A stretch of DNA of 64,000 bases, from positions 799,625 to 863,624 of the forward strand of contig PNAE01000007.1 of assembly GCA_003169895.1 (NCBI GenBank). Direction: 5' to 3'. Both the position numbers and the translations under genes were made by a program. This DNA is from Gemmatimonadota bacterium (GTDB taxonomy: Bacteria > Gemmatimonadota > Gemmatimonadetes > Gemmatimonadales > GWC2-71-9). The stretch's first letter is position 1. Every line of letters starts with the position of its first letter. The notes beneath the pieces are model-generated. The model did not search any database, was not told where the DNA came from, and was given only the letters and a program-made list of their open reading frames with translations. This document shows positions 56,897 through 64,000 of this stretch, one piece after another.

Positions 56897-59053
56897 TCAA
56901 CCGACGCGAGTGCGCTGGCGGTCCACTTCATCCAGTTGCTCACCCGGTTCGGCGAACTTCGCCGCGATGTCGAGCCATGAACGAGCCTCTGCCGCCGCCA
57001 CGCGCCGCATGGCGTTCTCGCTGGCCAGCAGCGCATAGTAGTACGTCATGGCGCGTTCGTGCCCGCGCTCGGCGTGCCGGGCGATCTCGCCGGCCACGTC
57101 GCCGATCTCCGCGTCGGGCGTGATCGCCTCCAGCGCCATCGCGATGGCGCGGTGTGTCTCGGTGCGGCGCGACTTGGTGAGCGTGCCGCGCACGACGGAG
57201 GCGATGACGGGGTGCGCACAGGAGTACCGTCCGTCATCTTCGCGCAATAGCAGACGCTCCACCAATTCATCGCACAAGGCCGAAGCGCGCAGTCGCGAAA
57301 CGCCGTGCACCTGGGATAGAAGCGCCGGGCGACACGATTCGCCGTACACGGCGGTGGTCGCCACGAAGTCGCGCATCTCGGAGGGAATGCGCGCAATCCG
57401 CGCGACGAGCACATCGCGCACCGCCGGAGGGACTGGCACGGCGTCGTCATGGTCGGCCGCGCCGTTGCCCCATGCGAACCATTCCCCAGAGTCGACGTCG
57501 ATGCCGAGCGCGCCCCCGGCGACCAGCAGCTTGAGCGATTCGACCACGTGGAGCGGGTTGCCGTCGGTCGCGTGATGCAGGCCCGCGGCCAGCCGCGTGA
57601 TGCGCTCATCGGTGTGAAGCGCACCCGATTCGCACACGAGCTGGCGCACCTCGTCCTCGGTGAGCGGCGTCATCGGAATGACGCTCGCCCCTGCCCCGGC
57701 TCTCAGCGCGCGGAAGAGCCGCGCCGCGGGAGCTTCCCGGTCGAGGTCACCGAGCCGCACGGTGAGCACCAGGGCCACGGACGCGGCAGCGAGGCGCTGC
57801 ATGAGGAAGTGCACCAGCGTGCATGTGTCGCCGTCGCACCACTGCAAGTCGTCGATCAGGAGCACGACCGGCGCTTCGTCGGCGAGCGCAAGCAGGAGTT
57901 GCGCGACCGCCTCGAACAGTCGCGAACGTTCGGCGGTGTCGGTCGCCTGTCCGGGCGCCGGTAGTCCGCGGTATGTCTGGTGAAGTTCCGGCAACAGGCG
58001 AGCAACCTCGGCGAGATACGCCGGCGCGGTGCCCCCGATGCCCGGCGCATCGCGTGCGCAGCGCAACGCTTCGACCATCGAACCGTACGGAATGTCCATC
58101 TCGGCATCGTGTCCGCGACCGCGCAGGACGGTACCTCCCTGCGCGCGGATCCACCGCAACCAGTCTTCGGCGAGTCGTGTCTTGCCCATCCCCACTTCAC
58201 CTTCAAGCAGCACAATCCGCCCCGTGCCCTCGGACACGTCGCGCCAGACGTCGGTGAGTACGCGCCACTGCCGTTCGCGGCCGATCAAACTCGGTGCAAA
58301 CTCCGGAGTGGTGCGCGCCGGCGCGTGGCCGTGGCGCCGCCGCTGAGCCGGATCCGCCTCGAGCCGCTGCTTGAGCGCGACCAGCGCGGCGCTCGGGTGC
58401 GATGGGCCTTCCTGGCGCGCGCGGTCGACGTGGGCGCGTACGAGCGCGAGGGCGGCGGCGTGATCGCCCGCCATGAGTTCCGACTCGGCGACCAGGCGCA
58501 CCGCCTCATCGGAGCGCGGCTCGTGTCCGAGCCACCGGGCACCGAGCATCGCCGCCTCGCGCCAGCGCGATGCCGCCATCGCGTCGCGTACCGCTGTGCG
58601 CAACGCCTGCACGTGGCGTTGCAGGAGCATCGCGCGCGTGCGGTCGACCCATTCTTCGTACACCGGGGAGCGCGGCACCGTAATGCCGGTCATGAACTGG
58701 GCGACATCGAACACGGCGGCCACCGCAGGCGAACTCTTGCAGGCGGCGAGGAACTCGCGCACGTCGCATTCCACTTCGCCGACGAGTTCAACCCGGTCGC
58801 GATTGGCACGCAATCCGTCGCCGAGCAGGCTGCGCAGTTGGGTGAGCGCCTGCCGGAGCGACGCATGGGCGGCCTTCTCGCTGGAATCCCCCCACAACAG
58901 GGTTGCCAACTCATCGCGTGAATGTGCGCCGGGCTCGAGCGTGAGATAGGACAGGAGGGCGAGACTCTTCGCGGTGCGCAGCGTCGCCGCCGGCGATCCC
59001 GGAGGGCGCACCACCGCAGCCGGCCCCATCAGGTTCAGCACGACGCGCGCCAC
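56897..59053 (-). CDS. SARP/AAA-type transcriptional regulator
   Basis: 718 aa from GTG 59053 (GAGGAGG 5 nt upstream). An N-terminal OmpR-like winged helix (about 22-100: AKSLALLSYLTLEPGAHSRDELATLLWGD) is followed by a bacterial transcriptional activation (BTAD) helical domain (about 100-235) and an AAA_16 ATPase. Walker A is GEVGMGKT (285-292) and Walker B is VVLLIDDLQWCD. The C-terminal helical region may be TPR-like, and the protein ends soon after it (EQLDEVDRQRTRVG), shorter than many LuxR-type LAL relatives. Divergent from the GAF-HlyD operon, which it probably controls. Confidence 0.9.
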   Translation of the reverse strand: MARVVLNLMGPAAVVRPPGSPAATLRTAKSLALLSYLTLEPGAHSRDELATLLWGDSSEKAAHASLRQALTQLRSLLGDGLRANRDRVELVGEVECDVREFLAACKSSPAVAAVFDVAQFMTGITVPRSPVYEEWVDRTRAMLLQRHVQALRTAVRDAMAASRWREAAMLGARWLGHEPRSDEAVRLVAESELMAGDHAAALALVRAHVDRARQEGPSHPSAALVALKQRLEADPAQRRRHGHAPARTTPEFAPSLIGRERQWRVLTDVWRDVSEGTGRIVLLEGEVGMGKTRLAEDWLRWIRAQGGTVLRGRGHDAEMDIPYGSMVEALRCARDAPGIGGTAPAYLAEVARLLPELHQTYRGLPAPGQATDTAERSRLFEAVAQLLLALADEAPVVLLIDDLQWCDGDTCTLVHFLMQRLAAASVALVLTVRLGDLDREAPAARLFRALRAGAGASVIPMTPLTEDEVRQLVCESGALHTDERITRLAAGLHHATDGNPLHVVESLKLLVAGGALGIDVDSGEWFAWGNGAADHDDAVPVPPAVRDVLVARIARIPSEMRDFVATTAVYGESCRPALLSQVHGVSRLRASALCDELVERLLLREDDGRYSCAHPVIASVVRGTLTKSRRTETHRAIAMALEAITPDAEIGDVAGEIARHAERGHERAMTYYYALLASENAMRRVAAAEARSWLDIAAKFAEPGEQLDEVDRQRTRVG

Positions 59054-59138
59054 GCGACCTCCTCACCGGCAGGCAGCAGAAGCTACCGGAACCGCACCAC
59101 TCCGCAAGGCGAGTAGCCCTCGACCGGTTGCCCCCTCC

Positions 59139-59168
59139 TTGACAGGTGTCGCGCTGACCCGCTACTAA
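59139..59168 (+). promoter_or_regulatory. promoter of the GAF-HlyD-M50 operon
   Basis: TTGACA (59139-59144), 18-nt spacer, TACTAA (59163-59168). The expected start of transcription falls on or next to GTG 59174, which would make the mRNA leaderless or nearly so. The -35 is perfect; the -10 is weak, as expected for a promoter needing an activator such as the divergent SARP protein. Confidence 0.45.
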
Positions 59169-59173
59169 AGGGC

Positions 59174-61114
59174 GTGGATCACGATCACGACGCCGTGCCG
59201 GCCGCCAGCGACGAATTGCGGGAGGAAGTCGAACGACTTCGTCTCCTGTACACGACGACGCTCGAGTTCAACGCATCCCTCGACTTCGACGAGGTGCTGA
59301 AGCGCGTGTTCAACCGGGTCGTCGCCGCGGTCGGTGCGCAGGGCGGCTCGATCTGGATCACAGAGGGCGATCAATTGCGGTGTCGCCTCGTGGTCGGAAA
59401 GGCGAGCAGAAAACTGCTCGACACGACGGAGCCGCTTGCTACCGCGTTCCGGGACGACCCGCTTCGTGGGGGACGGTCCTCCATCGTCAGTGACGCCACC
59501 GGCGAACACTCCGGCGAGATACTCACCCGCATGACGACCGACTTTGTCGCGCTGACCGCCATGTCGGCCGCGATGATTGCCGATGATGTGACTGTCGGCA
59601 AGATCGAGATGCTCAACAAGAGCACCGGCGCCGGCATCTTCGACGAGCGCGACCGGGAATTGCTCGAAGGACTCGCCACGTCGGCTGCGGTCGCGCTGCG
59701 CAACGCGCAACTCCATCTGGCCGGCAAACAGGCGCACGATCTCGCAATCGTTCTCGAGATCAGCCGCGAGATCACTTCGACACTCAACCTGGATCGCGTG
59801 CTGCAGTCAGTCGTAAACCTCGCCGGCAAGGCGCTGCCATTCGACCAGGCCGCCATCGGGATCTTCGTGAAGGGCGACTGCGTCATCCGCGCGATTGCCG
59901 GCGAGGAGAAGGTCGATCCGAAGGCCGATCGCACCCAACGGCTCGCCGCCTGGGGCCAGTACACGGCGCGCAACGGTGAAGTGTTTTACCTCTCCGACCG
60001 CGAGGCGCCGTCTTCCGACGCGGAAGCGGCGTTTGCGCGGCTCTTCGGGCCTGAGCTCGAAGCTGAAGGGCTGCGCAGCGGGTTCTACCTGCCGCTGAAG
60101 GACGAGCAAGGCGTGCTGGGCGTGCTGATGTTCGAGTCACAGGAGCCCGACTTCCTGCTGCCGCGCCAGCGCGAGCTCGCGGAAATCCTCGCGAACCAGA
60201 CAACGGTCGCGTTGCGCAACGCCGAGTTGTACGCGCAGGTGCCGATGGTCGACGCGCTGGGCGCGCTCGCGGCGAAGAAGCGCGCTCTGATGGCGGTGCC
60301 GCGGGGGCGGCTGCTCGGATACACGGTGCTCGCCGTGGTCGGCATCCTGTCGGTCACGCTGATCCGCTGGCCGCTGAGCGTGGCCGGCGAGGCGCCGGCA
60401 TTTCGCGCGATGGGGTTCGCCGAGGTGCGCACCCTGGTCCCCGGCGTGGTGGAACGCGTGATGGTCCGTGAAGGGATGAACGTGCCACGCGCGGCACCCC
60501 TGGCCAAGTTGCGAGACGCCGAACTCTCCGCCGACCGTGCGGCGGCGGCGGCGGCGGCCGCGGGCGCCGATCAGATGGCGACTGCGGCCGAAAGCCGCGC
60601 CAACACGGCAGAAGCGCGCCTGCAGCGCGTCCGCGCGGCGGCGTTGCGGCAGGAGATGGCGCTGGTCGACGAAGAAATTGCCGCCACCGTCATTCGTGCG
60701 CCGGTCAATGGCGTCGTCCTGACGGCGCGTCCCGAAGAGCGCGTCGGCTCCACACTCGCCGCGGGTGACGCGATCATGTCGCTCGGCCGCACCGACTCAC
60801 TGGAAGTCGATTTCGGTGTGGAACAGCGCGAAATTGGCCGCGTCATGCCCGACGCGATCGTGCGTGTGCGCGTCGACGCACTGCCGCAACGAACGTTCGA
60901 GGGACGGGTCACCTTCATCGGCGGGGCATCAGCCGGCTCGAACGGCGAGGTCTTCTTCCCGGTGCGCGCGGTCGTCGCCAACCCGGACGCATTGCTCAAA
61001 CCCGGCATGGCGGCGCATGCGAAGGTCCTGACCGCCAACGCGTCGACGCTCGACCGGATTTTCCGCGGTCCGATTCGATGGCTGCGACTCACGTGGTGGA
61101 GGATCTCGACGTGA
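59174..61114 (+). CDS. GAF-GAF-TM-HlyD hybrid protein
   Basis: 646 aa. Two GAF domains (about 35-180 and 195-350; LDFDEVLKRVFNRVVAAVGAQGG and LNLDRVLQSVVNLAGKALPF at their starts) lie in the cytosol. A single membrane helix (about 378-398) leads to a periplasmic HlyD-type membrane-fusion part. This consists of a lipoyl/barrel-sandwich half (LVPGVVERVMVREGMNVP), a short Ala-rich helical hairpin (about 455-495), the second half (IRAPVNGVVLTARPEERVG) and a beta-barrel. No kinase or cyclase domain is present. It thus links a cytosolic ligand sensor directly to an export adaptor. First gene of the operon. Confidence 0.88.
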   Translation: MDHDHDAVPAASDELREEVERLRLLYTTTLEFNASLDFDEVLKRVFNRVVAAVGAQGGSIWITEGDQLRCRLVVGKASRKLLDTTEPLATAFRDDPLRGGRSSIVSDATGEHSGEILTRMTTDFVALTAMSAAMIADDVTVGKIEMLNKSTGAGIFDERDRELLEGLATSAAVALRNAQLHLAGKQAHDLAIVLEISREITSTLNLDRVLQSVVNLAGKALPFDQAAIGIFVKGDCVIRAIAGEEKVDPKADRTQRLAAWGQYTARNGEVFYLSDREAPSSDAEAAFARLFGPELEAEGLRSGFYLPLKDEQGVLGVLMFESQEPDFLLPRQRELAEILANQTTVALRNAELYAQVPMVDALGALAAKKRALMAVPRGRLLGYTVLAVVGILSVTLIRWPLSVAGEAPAFRAMGFAEVRTLVPGVVERVMVREGMNVPRAAPLAKLRDAELSADRAAAAAAAAGADQMATAAESRANTAEARLQRVRAAALRQEMALVDEEIAATVIRAPVNGVVLTARPEERVGSTLAAGDAIMSLGRTDSLEVDFGVEQREIGRVMPDAIVRVRVDALPQRTFEGRVTFIGGASAGSNGEVFFPVRAVVANPDALLKPGMAAHAKVLTANASTLDRIFRGPIRWLRLTWWRIST

Positions 61115-62085
61115 AGGGAACACGAGTTTCGTTCGTATTGCCGCTGGCATGCGTGGTCATTCTGGCGGCGTGCGGCGGCAAGTCCGAATCGCCACGTGCC
61201 CCGAAGGCGGCAGCGCCGACGTTGTTCGTGGCCGAGAGTGCGACGGTCAACGTGCCGCTGAGCGTGCCGTCGCAGGTTTACGTCGAGCAGGACACTTGGC
61301 TTTACGCCCGGGCGCCCGGCGTCCTCGAGTCGCTGCTGGTGGACATCGGCAGTGAAGTGCACACGGGCGACGTCGTTGCCACGCTCGAGCGGGCGGATCA
61401 GGCGCTCGCACTCCAGCGCGCGGAGGTGTCCTGGGACTCGGCGAACCGCGCCGTGAACCGCGCCCACGGGCTCGCCGCGACCAAGAGCATCTCGACGGCC
61501 GACATCGAACAGGCCGAGACCGACCTCCACCAGGCCGAAGTGGCGCGGGCGCAGGCGCACCGTGCCGTGGACCTGACCCGCGTCACCGCACCGTTCGCCG
61601 GTGTGGTCGCTGCGCGAAGCGGCGTCCGCGCCGGCCATCTGGTCGCCCCGGGAGACTCGATCGTACGGGTTACTGCGCTCGCGCCGCTCCGGGTCGCCAT
61701 CCACGTCCCCGAAATCGAAGCCGCAGAACTTGCGGTTGGCGCCGTGGCCTCAGTCTCAGGGCCCGGTGGCTCGGCGCGAGCGACGATTATTCGCGCGGCG
61801 CCGTCGGTCGACGCGGCAAGCGGCACGCGCGAACTGGTGCTGGAACTGACGGGCAAGGCGACCCTCCGCCCCGGCGCCAGCGTCACCGTGCGCCTTGGCG
61901 GCGAACGCCGGCGGGTCATCGTCATCCCGGCCGCCGCAATTGCCGACTCCGGATACGTCGTGGTGTGGCAGGACGGGCGCACGTCGCTCCGCGCGGTAAC
62001 GCTGGGTGCGCGGCTCCCCGACGGCCGCGTGGAAGTCATCAGCGGACTCGCGGTGGGCGAACGCGTGATGCCCGCGCGCCCATGA
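61111..62085 (+). CDS. RND/HlyD-type periplasmic adaptor lipoprotein
   Basis: 324 aa from GTG 61111, with GGAGG 8 nt upstream and GTGA overlap to the previous gene. A lipoprotein signal ends in VILAAC. Membrane-fusion-protein order is clear: YARAPGVLESLLVDIGSEVHTGDVVATLE, helical hairpin (ALQRAEVSWDSANRAVNRAHG), VTAPFAGVVAARSGVRAGHLV, then beta-barrel and membrane-proximal domain (VIPAAAIADSGYVVVWQ, GLAVGERV). No RND pump is encoded inside the window; the partner may be beyond the edge. Confidence 0.92.
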   Translation: MKGTRVSFVLPLACVVILAACGGKSESPRAPKAAAPTLFVAESATVNVPLSVPSQVYVEQDTWLYARAPGVLESLLVDIGSEVHTGDVVATLERADQALALQRAEVSWDSANRAVNRAHGLAATKSISTADIEQAETDLHQAEVARAQAHRAVDLTRVTAPFAGVVAARSGVRAGHLVAPGDSIVRVTALAPLRVAIHVPEIEAAELAVGAVASVSGPGGSARATIIRAAPSVDAASGTRELVLELTGKATLRPGASVTVRLGGERRRVIVIPAAAIADSGYVVVWQDGRTSLRAVTLGARLPDGRVEVISGLAVGERVMPARP

Positions 62086-64000
62086 AGCAGTACAAGCTCC
62101 GCGGCGATCTCACGATCGTCGAGCAGACATACCGTGACGTACAGAGCTACATCGTCAAGGAACACGTCGAGCACAAGTACTACGCGTTCAGTTTCGTCGA
62201 AATACTCGTTATGCAGCAGTTCGACGGCGAGCAGACCTGCGCCACAATCGCCGCCGGGCTCGCCGAGCAGGGGCTGGCGATCAAGGAAGCGGCAGTCGAA
62301 TCGTTCGCCCGCAAACTTACCGGCATGGGCCTTGTCGAGCAGTCCGTGGCCGAACGATCGGTCTTGTTGATGGAGCGGGTGCGCGCCCAGCGCAACCGGC
62401 GCGTGAAGCAGGAGCGCTATCGCGGCACGTTCCTGCGGATGCGCTGGTCGGTCGGCGACCCGAACGAGTTCTTCAACAAATGGACGCCGCGACTGGGATT
62501 CTTCTTCTCGGCGCCGTTCATCGCGATCTCGATCGTGCTTTTCGTCGCATACTTCGGGATCGTCTTCAGCCGGCACGATGCGTTCCTCTCCGCGCTGCGC
62601 GCGATGTACCATCCGGGTTCGTGGAGTCTCGGGTTTTTTGCGACCTTCTGGGTGACGGGTCTCACGGTGATCGCGATCCACGAATTCGGCCACGGATTCG
62701 CGTGCAAGTACTTCGGCGGGGACGTGCACGAGATGGGCGCGATGCTCATTTACCTGCAACCGGCATTCTACTGCAATGTCAACGATGCATGGACCTTTCC
62801 GGAACTCAAGGCGCGGCTCTGGGTCACGGCGGCGGGGTCGTGGATTCAGATGGTGGTGGCGGGCCTTGCCGCGATCGTGTGGTGGGCTGTCGAGCCCGAC
62901 ACGCTGGTATCGCAGGTGGCGCTCATCGCCGTGTTGATCGGCGGCGCGATGACGCTGTTCGCGAACGCAAATCCTCTCATCCCGCTCGACGGATACTACG
63001 CGCTCAGCGATTTCCTCGGAGTGCCGAACCTCCGCAAGCGGGCGTTTCAGTACGTAGGGTATGCGTTCCGGCGCCACGTCTTGCGCCTCACGGTACCCGA
63101 CCTGCAGGCGAGCGCGCGCGAGAAGCGGATCTTCCTCGTATACGGGCTGCTGGCTTTCGCATATTCAGGAACCTTGCTCACGCTGTTCTTCAGCCGGTTC
63201 GTCGGCTGGGTGGCAGGAACCGTCGGTGCTCTCGGCTCGATCGTGCTGGCCCTGGTGATCTGGGTGCGCGTTCGCGACCGGGTGCGCACGTTGTGGCGCG
63301 GGATCGTGCGGGGCGTGCGCGCGCATCCCGGGGCCTGGCGGGTGCTGCTCCGTCCCCGCAACCTGGCCGTCGCAGCTGTCCTGGTGGCGGCCGGCGTACT
63401 CGTGCCATGCACGATCCACGTCGGCGGGTCGTTTGTTGCCGTGACGCCGGTGTACGTCGCACTCACGGCGCCCAGCCAGGGGATCGTCGTGCGGCTGTTC
63501 GCCGCGGAGGGGTCCCTGCTCTCCGCGGGCGCTCCAATCGCCACGGTGCGCGACGTCGCGGGCGATCGCCAGGAGATTGTGCTGGCACGAGAGGTCGATT
63601 CGCTCGCCGCCCGCCAGGCGCGCGCGCGCGCAGAGGGGAGCGAGGCCGATGTACAAGGTTTTGCCGCACAGCAGGCTGAATTGGCGGCGGCGCTCACTGC
63701 GCTGCGCGATCGGTCCGGCAGGCTCGACCTTCGCGCGCCAGTGGCCGGCGTCGTCGTCACGCAGCGCCTCGAGGAAATGACGGGACGCCACGTGGCCCGC
63801 GGCGATACCGTGGTACAGCTCATCGGCACCGGCGACTCGCTCGAACTGCGCGTCATGCTCGAGGGCGCGGGCGCAACGGAGGTCCGCGCGGGGCAGCCGG
63901 CCTCGGTGATCTCGCTGAGCGACCTGACCGTGCCGCTCGCGGCGAGGGTGGCGACCGTTGCGGTGGCCGGCGCGCCAATCGCCGCGGGCGTCGCCCCGGG
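62082..64000 (+). CDS. PqqD-M50 protease-HlyD fusion (3' end outside window)
   Basis: At least 639 aa; ATG 62082 overlaps the previous stop (ATGA), and no stop is reached by 64000. The N-terminal 90 residues resemble a PqqD/RiPP-recognition domain (YYAFSFVEILVMQQFDGEQT, AVESFARKLTGMGLVE). A membrane site-2 protease core follows, with His200-Glu201-x-x-His204 in HEFGHGFACKYFGG and the third ligand Asp303 in NANPLIPLDGYY. After more helices the C-terminal part is a HlyD-like adaptor (LTAPSQGIVVRLFAAEGSLLSAG, LRAPVAGVVVTQRLEEMTG). The catalytic set is complete, so it should be an active intramembrane metalloprotease. Confidence 0.9.
   Translation, partial: MKQYKLRGDLTIVEQTYRDVQSYIVKEHVEHKYYAFSFVEILVMQQFDGEQTCATIAAGLAEQGLAIKEAAVESFARKLTGMGLVEQSVAERSVLLMERVRAQRNRRVKQERYRGTFLRMRWSVGDPNEFFNKWTPRLGFFFSAPFIAISIVLFVAYFGIVFSRHDAFLSALRAMYHPGSWSLGFFATFWVTGLTVIAIHEFGHGFACKYFGGDVHEMGAMLIYLQPAFYCNVNDAWTFPELKARLWVTAAGSWIQMVVAGLAAIVWWAVEPDTLVSQVALIAVLIGGAMTLFANANPLIPLDGYYALSDFLGVPNLRKRAFQYVGYAFRRHVLRLTVPDLQASAREKRIFLVYGLLAFAYSGTLLTLFFSRFVGWVAGTVGALGSIVLALVIWVRVRDRVRTLWRGIVRGVRAHPGAWRVLLRPRNLAVAAVLVAAGVLVPCTIHVGGSFVAVTPVYVALTAPSQGIVVRLFAAEGSLLSAGAPIATVRDVAGDRQEIVLAREVDSLAARQARARAEGSEADVQGFAAQQAELAAALTALRDRSGRLDLRAPVAGVVVTQRLEEMTGRHVARGDTVVQLIGTGDSLELRVMLEGAGATEVRAGQPASVISLSDLTVPLAARVATVAVAGAPIAAGVAP

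What the first reader, a model, noticed from the sequence alone, without database searches (positions are those of the whole stretch)
56897..64000. Sensor-adaptor-protease export operon: SARP regulator, GAF-GAF-TM-HlyD, MFP lipoprotein, PqqD-M50-HlyD
Seen: three genes with 4-nt overlaps encode three different HlyD-type adaptors. One is fused to cytosolic GAF domains and one to a PqqD-like domain plus a complete site-2 protease. Known: PqqD-like domains bind RiPP leader peptides, M50 proteases cut membrane-embedded peptides, and HlyD proteins bridge inner-membrane pumps to outer-membrane channels. Inference: this is an export and maturation machine for a peptide or lipoprotein. Its assembly would be gated by a ligand seen by the GAF domains and its expression set by the divergent SARP/AAA protein. 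I know of no described system with this exact combination.
Basis: partly seen in the sequence, partly recalled or inferred. Interest (0 to 1): 0.88.

Follow-up and report, generated by a model that had tools for sequence, protein, structure and literature searches.

The report
Peptide-maturing export operon with precursor peptides
This bacterial operon appears to bind tiny precursor peptides by a conserved leader, cut them inside the membrane and pass the short tails outward, and the same protease-adaptor machine sits beside giant LEPR-tagged surface proteins in other phyla, which suggests a shared and so far undescribed secretion and processing system.

Summary
All three HlyD-type genes are real and overlap by 4 nt. 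The third (691 aa, ends 157 nt past the window) is RRE + site-2 protease + HlyD. Its N-terminal domain matches solved RiPP recognition elements bound to leader peptides. The missing cargo was found. A 60-aa ORF follows the protease gene and ends at a strong terminator. Related loci carry 1-3 such ~50-aa genes, with a conserved leader ending ELEERIAP and a variable tail of 3-19 aa. Peptide and GAF-HlyD genes co-occur in Gemmatimonadota (25 genomes with both, of 32 and 30 in 346). The leader end resembles the daptide motif ELExMEAP, whose leader is removed by an RRE-site-2 protease, the closest named relative of ours. In other phyla the protease-HlyD gene sits beside large proteins with an N-terminal LEDRIAP or LEPR-XLL motif; all 18 LEPR-XLL-positive Marinomonas genomes have it. 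Best explanation: an RRE-guided intramembrane leader peptidase fused to an export adaptor that releases short peptides. Peptides often sit beside SARP/AAA or TPR proteins, so a pheromone role is plausible but untested. Cleavage, export and GAF gating are inferred. No pump is encoded in the locus.

The parts
56897..59053 (-). SARP-like / AAA_16 regulator, divergent from the operon
   Evidence: Pfam AAA_16 E 9.5e-25; Trans_reg_C and BTAD weak; syntenic homologue in nearly all relatives with the peptides
59054..59173 (.). Divergent intergenic region (presumed promoters)
   Evidence: position only; no sigma-70 consensus found by the scan
59174..61114 (+). GAF-GAF-TM-HlyD adaptor (646 aa)
   Evidence: GAF_2 E 3e-20 (two stretches), HlyD_D23 E 1e-20; family alignment A2
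61111..62085 (+). Periplasmic adaptor (MFP) lipoprotein, GTG start in a 4-nt overlap
   Evidence: TIGR01730 RND_mfp E 9.9e-46, above cut-off; lipobox LAAC; GTGA overlap
62082..64000 (+). RRE-M50-HlyD fusion (691 aa; the gene continues 157 nt past the window). Two further parts of the system lie just beyond the window end and so cannot be listed here: the 60-aa precursor peptide gene (G000:C8:863929-864111 = L005:13930-14112, 305-487 nt past position 64000) and its terminator (L005:14133-14168)
   Evidence: NCBIfam NF041824 daptide_HExxH E 2.9e-52 over residues 19-402, below its cut-off; HlyD_3; model pLDDT 83.6 with MacA/MexA-like HlyD part. Peptide; terminator:
62082..62345 (+). N-terminal RRE (PqqD-like winged helix), residues 1-88
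   Evidence: Foldseek top hits TbiB1-leader 5v1u/5v1v, lasso B1-leader 6jx3, sactisynthase 5wgg/5why
62679..62693 (+). HEFGH zinc-protease motif (residues 200-204)
   Evidence: H200, E201 and H204 invariant in A1 and in the wider A5
62970..62996 (+). NPLIPLDGY, second site-2-protease motif (residues 297-305)
   Evidence: N297, P298, L299, D303, G304 and Y305 invariant
63414..64000 (+). C-terminal HlyD barrel-sandwich/hairpin (residues 445 on; continues past the window)
   Evidence: HlyD_3 E 3e-9; Foldseek MacA/MexA

Best explanation
The operon encodes a leader-guided intramembrane peptidase joined to an export adaptor, working on tiny ribosomal peptides. The cytosolic RRE of the third protein binds the conserved leader of a ~50-aa precursor. 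Its site-2 protease cuts at or near the end of the leader (ELEERIAP|), releasing a short C-terminal peptide (median 7 aa; here predicted STLLPKSTTHGGGGA). The fused HlyD part, with the MFP lipoprotein and the GAF-HlyD protein, forms a periplasmic adaptor that hands the product to a TolC-type channel encoded elsewhere. The SARP/AAA gene controls the locus and may itself respond to the peptide. SHOWN by computation: RRE fold, intact protease motifs, HlyD domains, conserved gene order, the peptide family and its co-occurrence, selection on the leader, the terminator. INFERRED: leader binding, cut position, export, regulation, signalling.
For: RRE: the nine best PDB matches to the modelled domain are RREs, several solved with leader peptides, prob 1.0-0.85, although none reaches E 0.001. 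The closest named relative of residues 19-402 is the daptide intramembrane metalloprotease; in daptides the RRE is N-terminally fused to a site-2 protease, the precursor motif is ELExMEAP, leader residues are numbered E(-8) to P(-1), and MpaP is said to remove the leader (PMC10036551). Peptides: in 346 Gemmatimonadota genomes 32 carry the peptide, 30 the GAF-HlyD gene, 25 both (Fisher 5e-27). Complete loci show SARP, 1-3 peptides, GAF-HlyD, MFP, M50-HlyD while flanking genes differ. Leader under purifying selection (median dN/dS 0.21 in 20 close pairs; leader identity 85%, tail identity 21%). The own peptide gene is followed by a strong terminator. The four conserved proteins have correlated distances (r 0.92-0.96), though shared species history could give this too. 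Outside the phylum the M50-HlyD gene neighbours large proteins with an N-terminal LEDRIAP or LEPR-XLL motif; in 49 Marinomonas genomes all 18 with LEPR-XLL have the protease gene, 6 have the protease alone, 25 neither (Fisher 1e-8). A Chthoniobacterales locus continues with an outer-membrane efflux protein after GAF-HlyD, MFP and M50 (L098).
Against: No experiment. No pump (ABC, RND, MFS) lies in the conserved locus, so the energy source for export is unexplained. The cut after AP is by analogy with daptides only. G250 has the three-gene operon with no detectable peptide, as do the partial contigs of G238 and G266. In the own genome the peptide lies downstream rather than upstream. The M50 Pfam score is just below cut-off for the protein alone. 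Some peptides lie far from any export operon.
Confidence: 0.7

Rival explanations
1. Extension of the best explanation: the released tails are peptide pheromones, read by the adjacent SARP/AAA or TPR proteins, a Gram-negative counterpart of the Gram-positive scheme in which a site-2 protease matures short linear peptides sensed by TPR regulators.
For: Predicted tails are 3-19 aa, median 7. Peptides lie beside SARP/AAA genes even where export genes are absent (L186, L201), beside a cyclase-AAA-TPR gene (L194) or a similar gene (L210), and directly before TPR genes with overlapping ends (L189, L209). Four unlinked peptides in two genera share a SNHNE-type tail (ANHNE in one), against an otherwise variable tail. 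Site-2 proteases mature pheromones in Gram-positives (PMC10202637).
Against: SARP/AAA and TPR genes may be common in this phylum, and no background rate was computed. No import route is known. Some peptides (L193, L196) have no such neighbour. The Gram-positive regulators are described as found in Gram-positive bacteria (PMC7564271).
Confidence: 0.35
2. The tails are small bacteriocins or other secreted effectors rather than signals.
For: Leader-core layout and several variable copies per locus resemble RiPP precursors; tails are rich in R, L, G, A and K. Daptides are haemolytic peptides with a related protease (PMC10036551).
Against: No tailoring enzyme and no evident immunity gene is conserved in the locus; many tails are only 3-7 aa.
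Confidence: 0.2
3. The peptide is not cargo but a regulatory partner of the protease-adaptor, whose true cargo is a larger surface protein as in the LEPR-XLL systems.
For: In other phyla the same protease-HlyD protein accompanies very large LEPR or LEDRIAP proteins.
Against: No large cargo gene is conserved in the Gemmatimonadota loci examined. In the own genome the DNA pattern for this motif found only 5 sites in any frame, fewer than its reversed control (17), and one of them is this peptide.
Confidence: 0.12
4. An ordinary efflux or envelope-stress operon in which the site-2 protease cuts an anti-sigma factor or similar.
For: The MFP lipoprotein is RND_mfp above cut-off; site-2 proteases commonly act in regulated proteolysis (PMC10202637).
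Against: RRE domain, co-occurring leader-tail peptides, and no pump or anti-sigma gene recognised in the conserved locus.
Confidence: 0.06

Closest known systems
Daptide leader peptidase MpaP (NCBIfam NF041824 daptide_HExxH; PMC10036551)
   Same: RRE fused N-terminally to a site-2 protease; several short precursors per locus; leader ending ELExxxAP
   Different: Ours adds a C-terminal HlyD adaptor, has no daptide tailoring enzymes, and its peptides lack the invariant C-terminal Thr
YydH/LiaK epipeptide maturation metalloprotease (NF058609)
   Same: M50 protease for a small ribosomal peptide; weak sequence match (E 5e-9)
   Different: 36 bits against a cut-off of 225; ours carries a HlyD fusion; no radical-SAM partner recognised in our locus
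LEPR-XLL proteins (NCBIfam NF012209)
   Same: LExR motif, and a neighbouring protease-HlyD gene of the same family
   Different: Those are large proteins with the motif at the N-terminus; ours are ~50 aa with the motif near the C-terminus; the own peptide does not hit the LEPR model
Site-2 protease Eep/RseP and Gram-positive peptide pheromones (PMC10202637)
   Same: Intramembrane protease maturing short linear peptides
   Different: The review mentions no HlyD or RiPP link; different regulators; Gram-positive
Tripartite MFP-TolC exporters (MacA, MexA; type I secretion)
   Same: HlyD/MFP fold of the adaptor parts
   Different: No ABC, RND or MFS pump in the locus

Membership tests
Daptide biosynthesis | RRE fused to a site-2 protease | tested here: met
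Daptide biosynthesis | Precursor leader motif ELExMEAP | tested here: inconclusive
   ELEERIAP matches at the E, L, E, A and P positions but has R-I for M-E
Daptide biosynthesis | Invariant C-terminal Thr on the precursor | tested here: not met
   tails listed do not share a C-terminal Thr; the own peptide ends in Ala
Daptide biosynthesis | Oxidative decarboxylase, aminotransferase and methyltransferase in the cluster | tested here: not met
   conserved set is SARP, peptides, GAF-HlyD, MFP, M50-HlyD, sometimes a kinase
YydH/LiaK epipeptide system | Score above the NF058609 cut-off (225 bits) | tested here: not met
   36.2 bits
LEPR-XLL proteins | Match to NF012209 | tested here: not met
   own peptide has no NCBIfam match; resemblance is of the short motif only
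Type I / tripartite exporter | Inner-membrane pump (ABC, RND or MFS) encoded with the adaptor | tested here: not met
   none in the own downstream flank or conserved across relatives
Type I / tripartite exporter | Outer-membrane TolC-type channel | tested here: inconclusive
   TolC family present elsewhere in the genome, not in the operon; adjacent in L098
RRNPP-type peptide signalling | Short peptide gene next to a TPR regulator | tested here: inconclusive
   TPR or AAA-TPR neighbours for several peptides; no background rate computed
RRNPP-type peptide signalling | Mature peptide binds the regulator | not testable with these tools
   needs a binding assay
RRE-dependent RiPP system in general | RRE binds the leader | not testable with these tools
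   fold matches leader-bound RREs; binding not shown
RRE-dependent RiPP system in general | Post-translational modification of the core | tested here: inconclusive
   no tailoring enzyme is conserved in the loci; a Ser/Thr kinase gene occurs in a subset

The most novel reading that the evidence does not exclude
A Gram-negative peptide-pheromone system in which an RRE-site-2 protease-HlyD fusion both matures and exports short signals read by SARP/AAA or TPR receptors, and which is one branch of a wider LExR-tag secretion system that also handles giant LEPR-XLL surface proteins, with the intramembrane protease standing in for a conventional pump.
Probability: 0.3. Interest if true: 0.93.

Novelty: new variant of a known kind. 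Interest (0 to 1): 0.85.

Why it matters
It would give a candidate processing and export machine to the LEPR-XLL surface proteins, for which I found no described mechanism in the searched library, and would tie them to RiPP-type leader recognition. In Gemmatimonadota it would be a compact, testable peptide secretion and possibly signalling system. The leader motif shared with daptides makes the cut site directly testable.

Tried and rejected
Daptide membership: rejected (no tailoring genes, no terminal Thr). Literature searches for the GAF/HlyD/M50/RRE combination, for LEPR-XLL with M50 or HlyD, and for the ELEERIAP string found nothing relevant; the ELEERIAP hits were mostly fungal taxonomy papers, seemingly matches inside a species name. 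The LEPR-XLL mentions found were one Vibrio genome paper and a Lake Baikal metatranscriptome paper; only the Vibrio passage was read. The own peptide has no NCBIfam match. A search for LExR-AP sites in the own genome gave fewer than the reversed control, so it adds nothing beyond the peptide already known. Two RiPP/RRE papers were searched for LEPR, Gemmatimonadota and M50 terms without a relevant hit. Adjacency of LEPR-XLL ORFs and the protease pair was worked out by my arithmetic on the coordinates for 13 loci (L108, L112, L116, L121, L122, L123, L127, L130, L135, L139, L140, L141, L145), taking the handle contig to be the locus contig; the other loci either break at contig ends or could not be matched.
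Full report
WHAT IS THERE. The window is G000:C8:799625-863624; the last gene ends 157 nt past it, at L005:13782. Gene 1 is GAF-GAF-TM-HlyD, gene 2 an MFP lipoprotein with a GTGA overlap, gene 3 an M50-HlyD fusion with an ATGA overlap, and a SARP/AAA gene is divergent. After gene 3 comes a 60-aa ORF, MSSSKTPNFKLKLTPEQQAMVRKATGKNAAAIELTVQELEQRIAPSTLLPKSTTHGGGGA (L005:13930-14112, 305-487 nt past position 64000), with a GGAGGA sequence before its ATG, then a 16-pair terminator, then genes on the other strand.

THE N-TERMINAL DOMAIN. Residues 1-123 modelled with 27 sequences give three strands and then helices at pLDDT 83.5. The nine best PDB matches are RREs: TbiB1 and lasso B1 bound to leader peptides, and a sactisynthase; prob 1.0-0.85, best E 0.003, so support is from the consistency of the list and not from any single E-value. 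The whole protein (639 aa in the window) models at pLDDT 83.6, and its best PDB matches are MFP adaptors such as MacA and MexA. The closest named protein family is the daptide intramembrane metalloprotease (E 2.9e-52, 178 bits against a cut-off of 300), so it is a relative and not a member.

THE PEPTIDES. Neighbourhoods of homologues show a repeated layout: divergent SARP/AAA, one to three small peptide genes, GAF-HlyD, MFP, M50-HlyD, and in a subset a Ser/Thr kinase gene, while the outer flanks differ. The peptides share a leader of the form LTPEQKAxIRxATGKDAEALELSVEELEERIAP and then differ. Over 20 close pairs the leader has median dN/dS 0.21 and 85% identity against 21% for the tail. In 346 genomes the peptide and the GAF-HlyD gene co-occur in 25. 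Exceptions are recorded: G250 has the operon without a detectable peptide, G015 has peptide and SARP without the operon, and several weak hits cover the leader half only.

THE CUT SITE. In the daptide paper the precursor motif is ELExMEAP, leader residues are numbered E(-8) to P(-1), and MpaP is said to remove the leader (PMC10036551). ELEERIAP fits the same register at E, L, E, A and P. I infer a cut after AP here; it is not shown.

OTHER PHYLA. Relatives of the M50-HlyD gene were found in Planctomycetota, SAR324, Chthoniobacterales, Marinomonas and others. Large proteins beside them carry KLEDRIAP (L092), SLEDRIAP (L093, L095) or LEPR-XLL (L108, L123; weaker L116, L128) near the N-terminus. 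A search of 25 records found LEPR-XLL above cut-off in 22. In 49 genomes of the genus of L140 (Marinomonas) all 18 with LEPR-XLL also have the protease gene. The loci were chosen because they have the protease gene, so that count alone is biased; the genus-wide test is not chosen in that way. In L098 an outer-membrane efflux protein follows the three genes.

SIGNALLING. Peptides lie next to SARP/AAA, cyclase-AAA-TPR or TPR genes in several places, including loci without export genes, and four unlinked peptides in two genera share a SNHNE-type tail. With site-2 proteases known to mature pheromones in Gram-positives, a pheromone role is a reasonable guess. It remains a guess: no background rate for such neighbours was computed, and no import route is known.

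VERDICT. Observation confirmed; the peptide-maturation idea is well supported by genome evidence, while GAF gating and SARP control are untested. No paper found in the searched library describes the combination or links LEPR-XLL to this protease, which is a statement about those searches only.

Noticed in passing
L059:8812-9042 (G000:C8 near 1458.8 kb): Second own-genome ORF with the same leader half (LTPEQKEMVRRMSGQNIDAIEL) but no LExRIAP end, next to a Ser/Thr kinase gene.
   Followed up: partly
L187, L188, L189, L209: Unlinked peptides whose tails share RLASNHNET or a close form, two of them directly before a TPR gene.
   Followed up: partly
L058, L060, L061, L062, L066: A different M50 subtype (up to ~800 aa, C-terminus ending WSWW) without GAF-HlyD or the peptides.
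   Followed up: no
L194, L195, L210: Class-level variants with a Crp-like gene (L194 by Pfam, others by sequence resemblance) and, in L194 and L210, a large cyclase/AAA-type gene beside the peptide in place of the SARP gene.
   Followed up: partly
L045, L047, L048, L050-L054: Ser/Thr kinase-like gene just downstream of M50-HlyD in a subset of loci; role unknown.
   Followed up: no
L105:2966-3406 and L109:5594-6022: PilZ-domain gene (L105 by Pfam; L109 similar in sequence) just upstream of the GAF-HlyD-like gene in Planctomycetota loci.
   Followed up: no
L206 (G250): Three-gene operon present but no peptide detected.
   Followed up: partly
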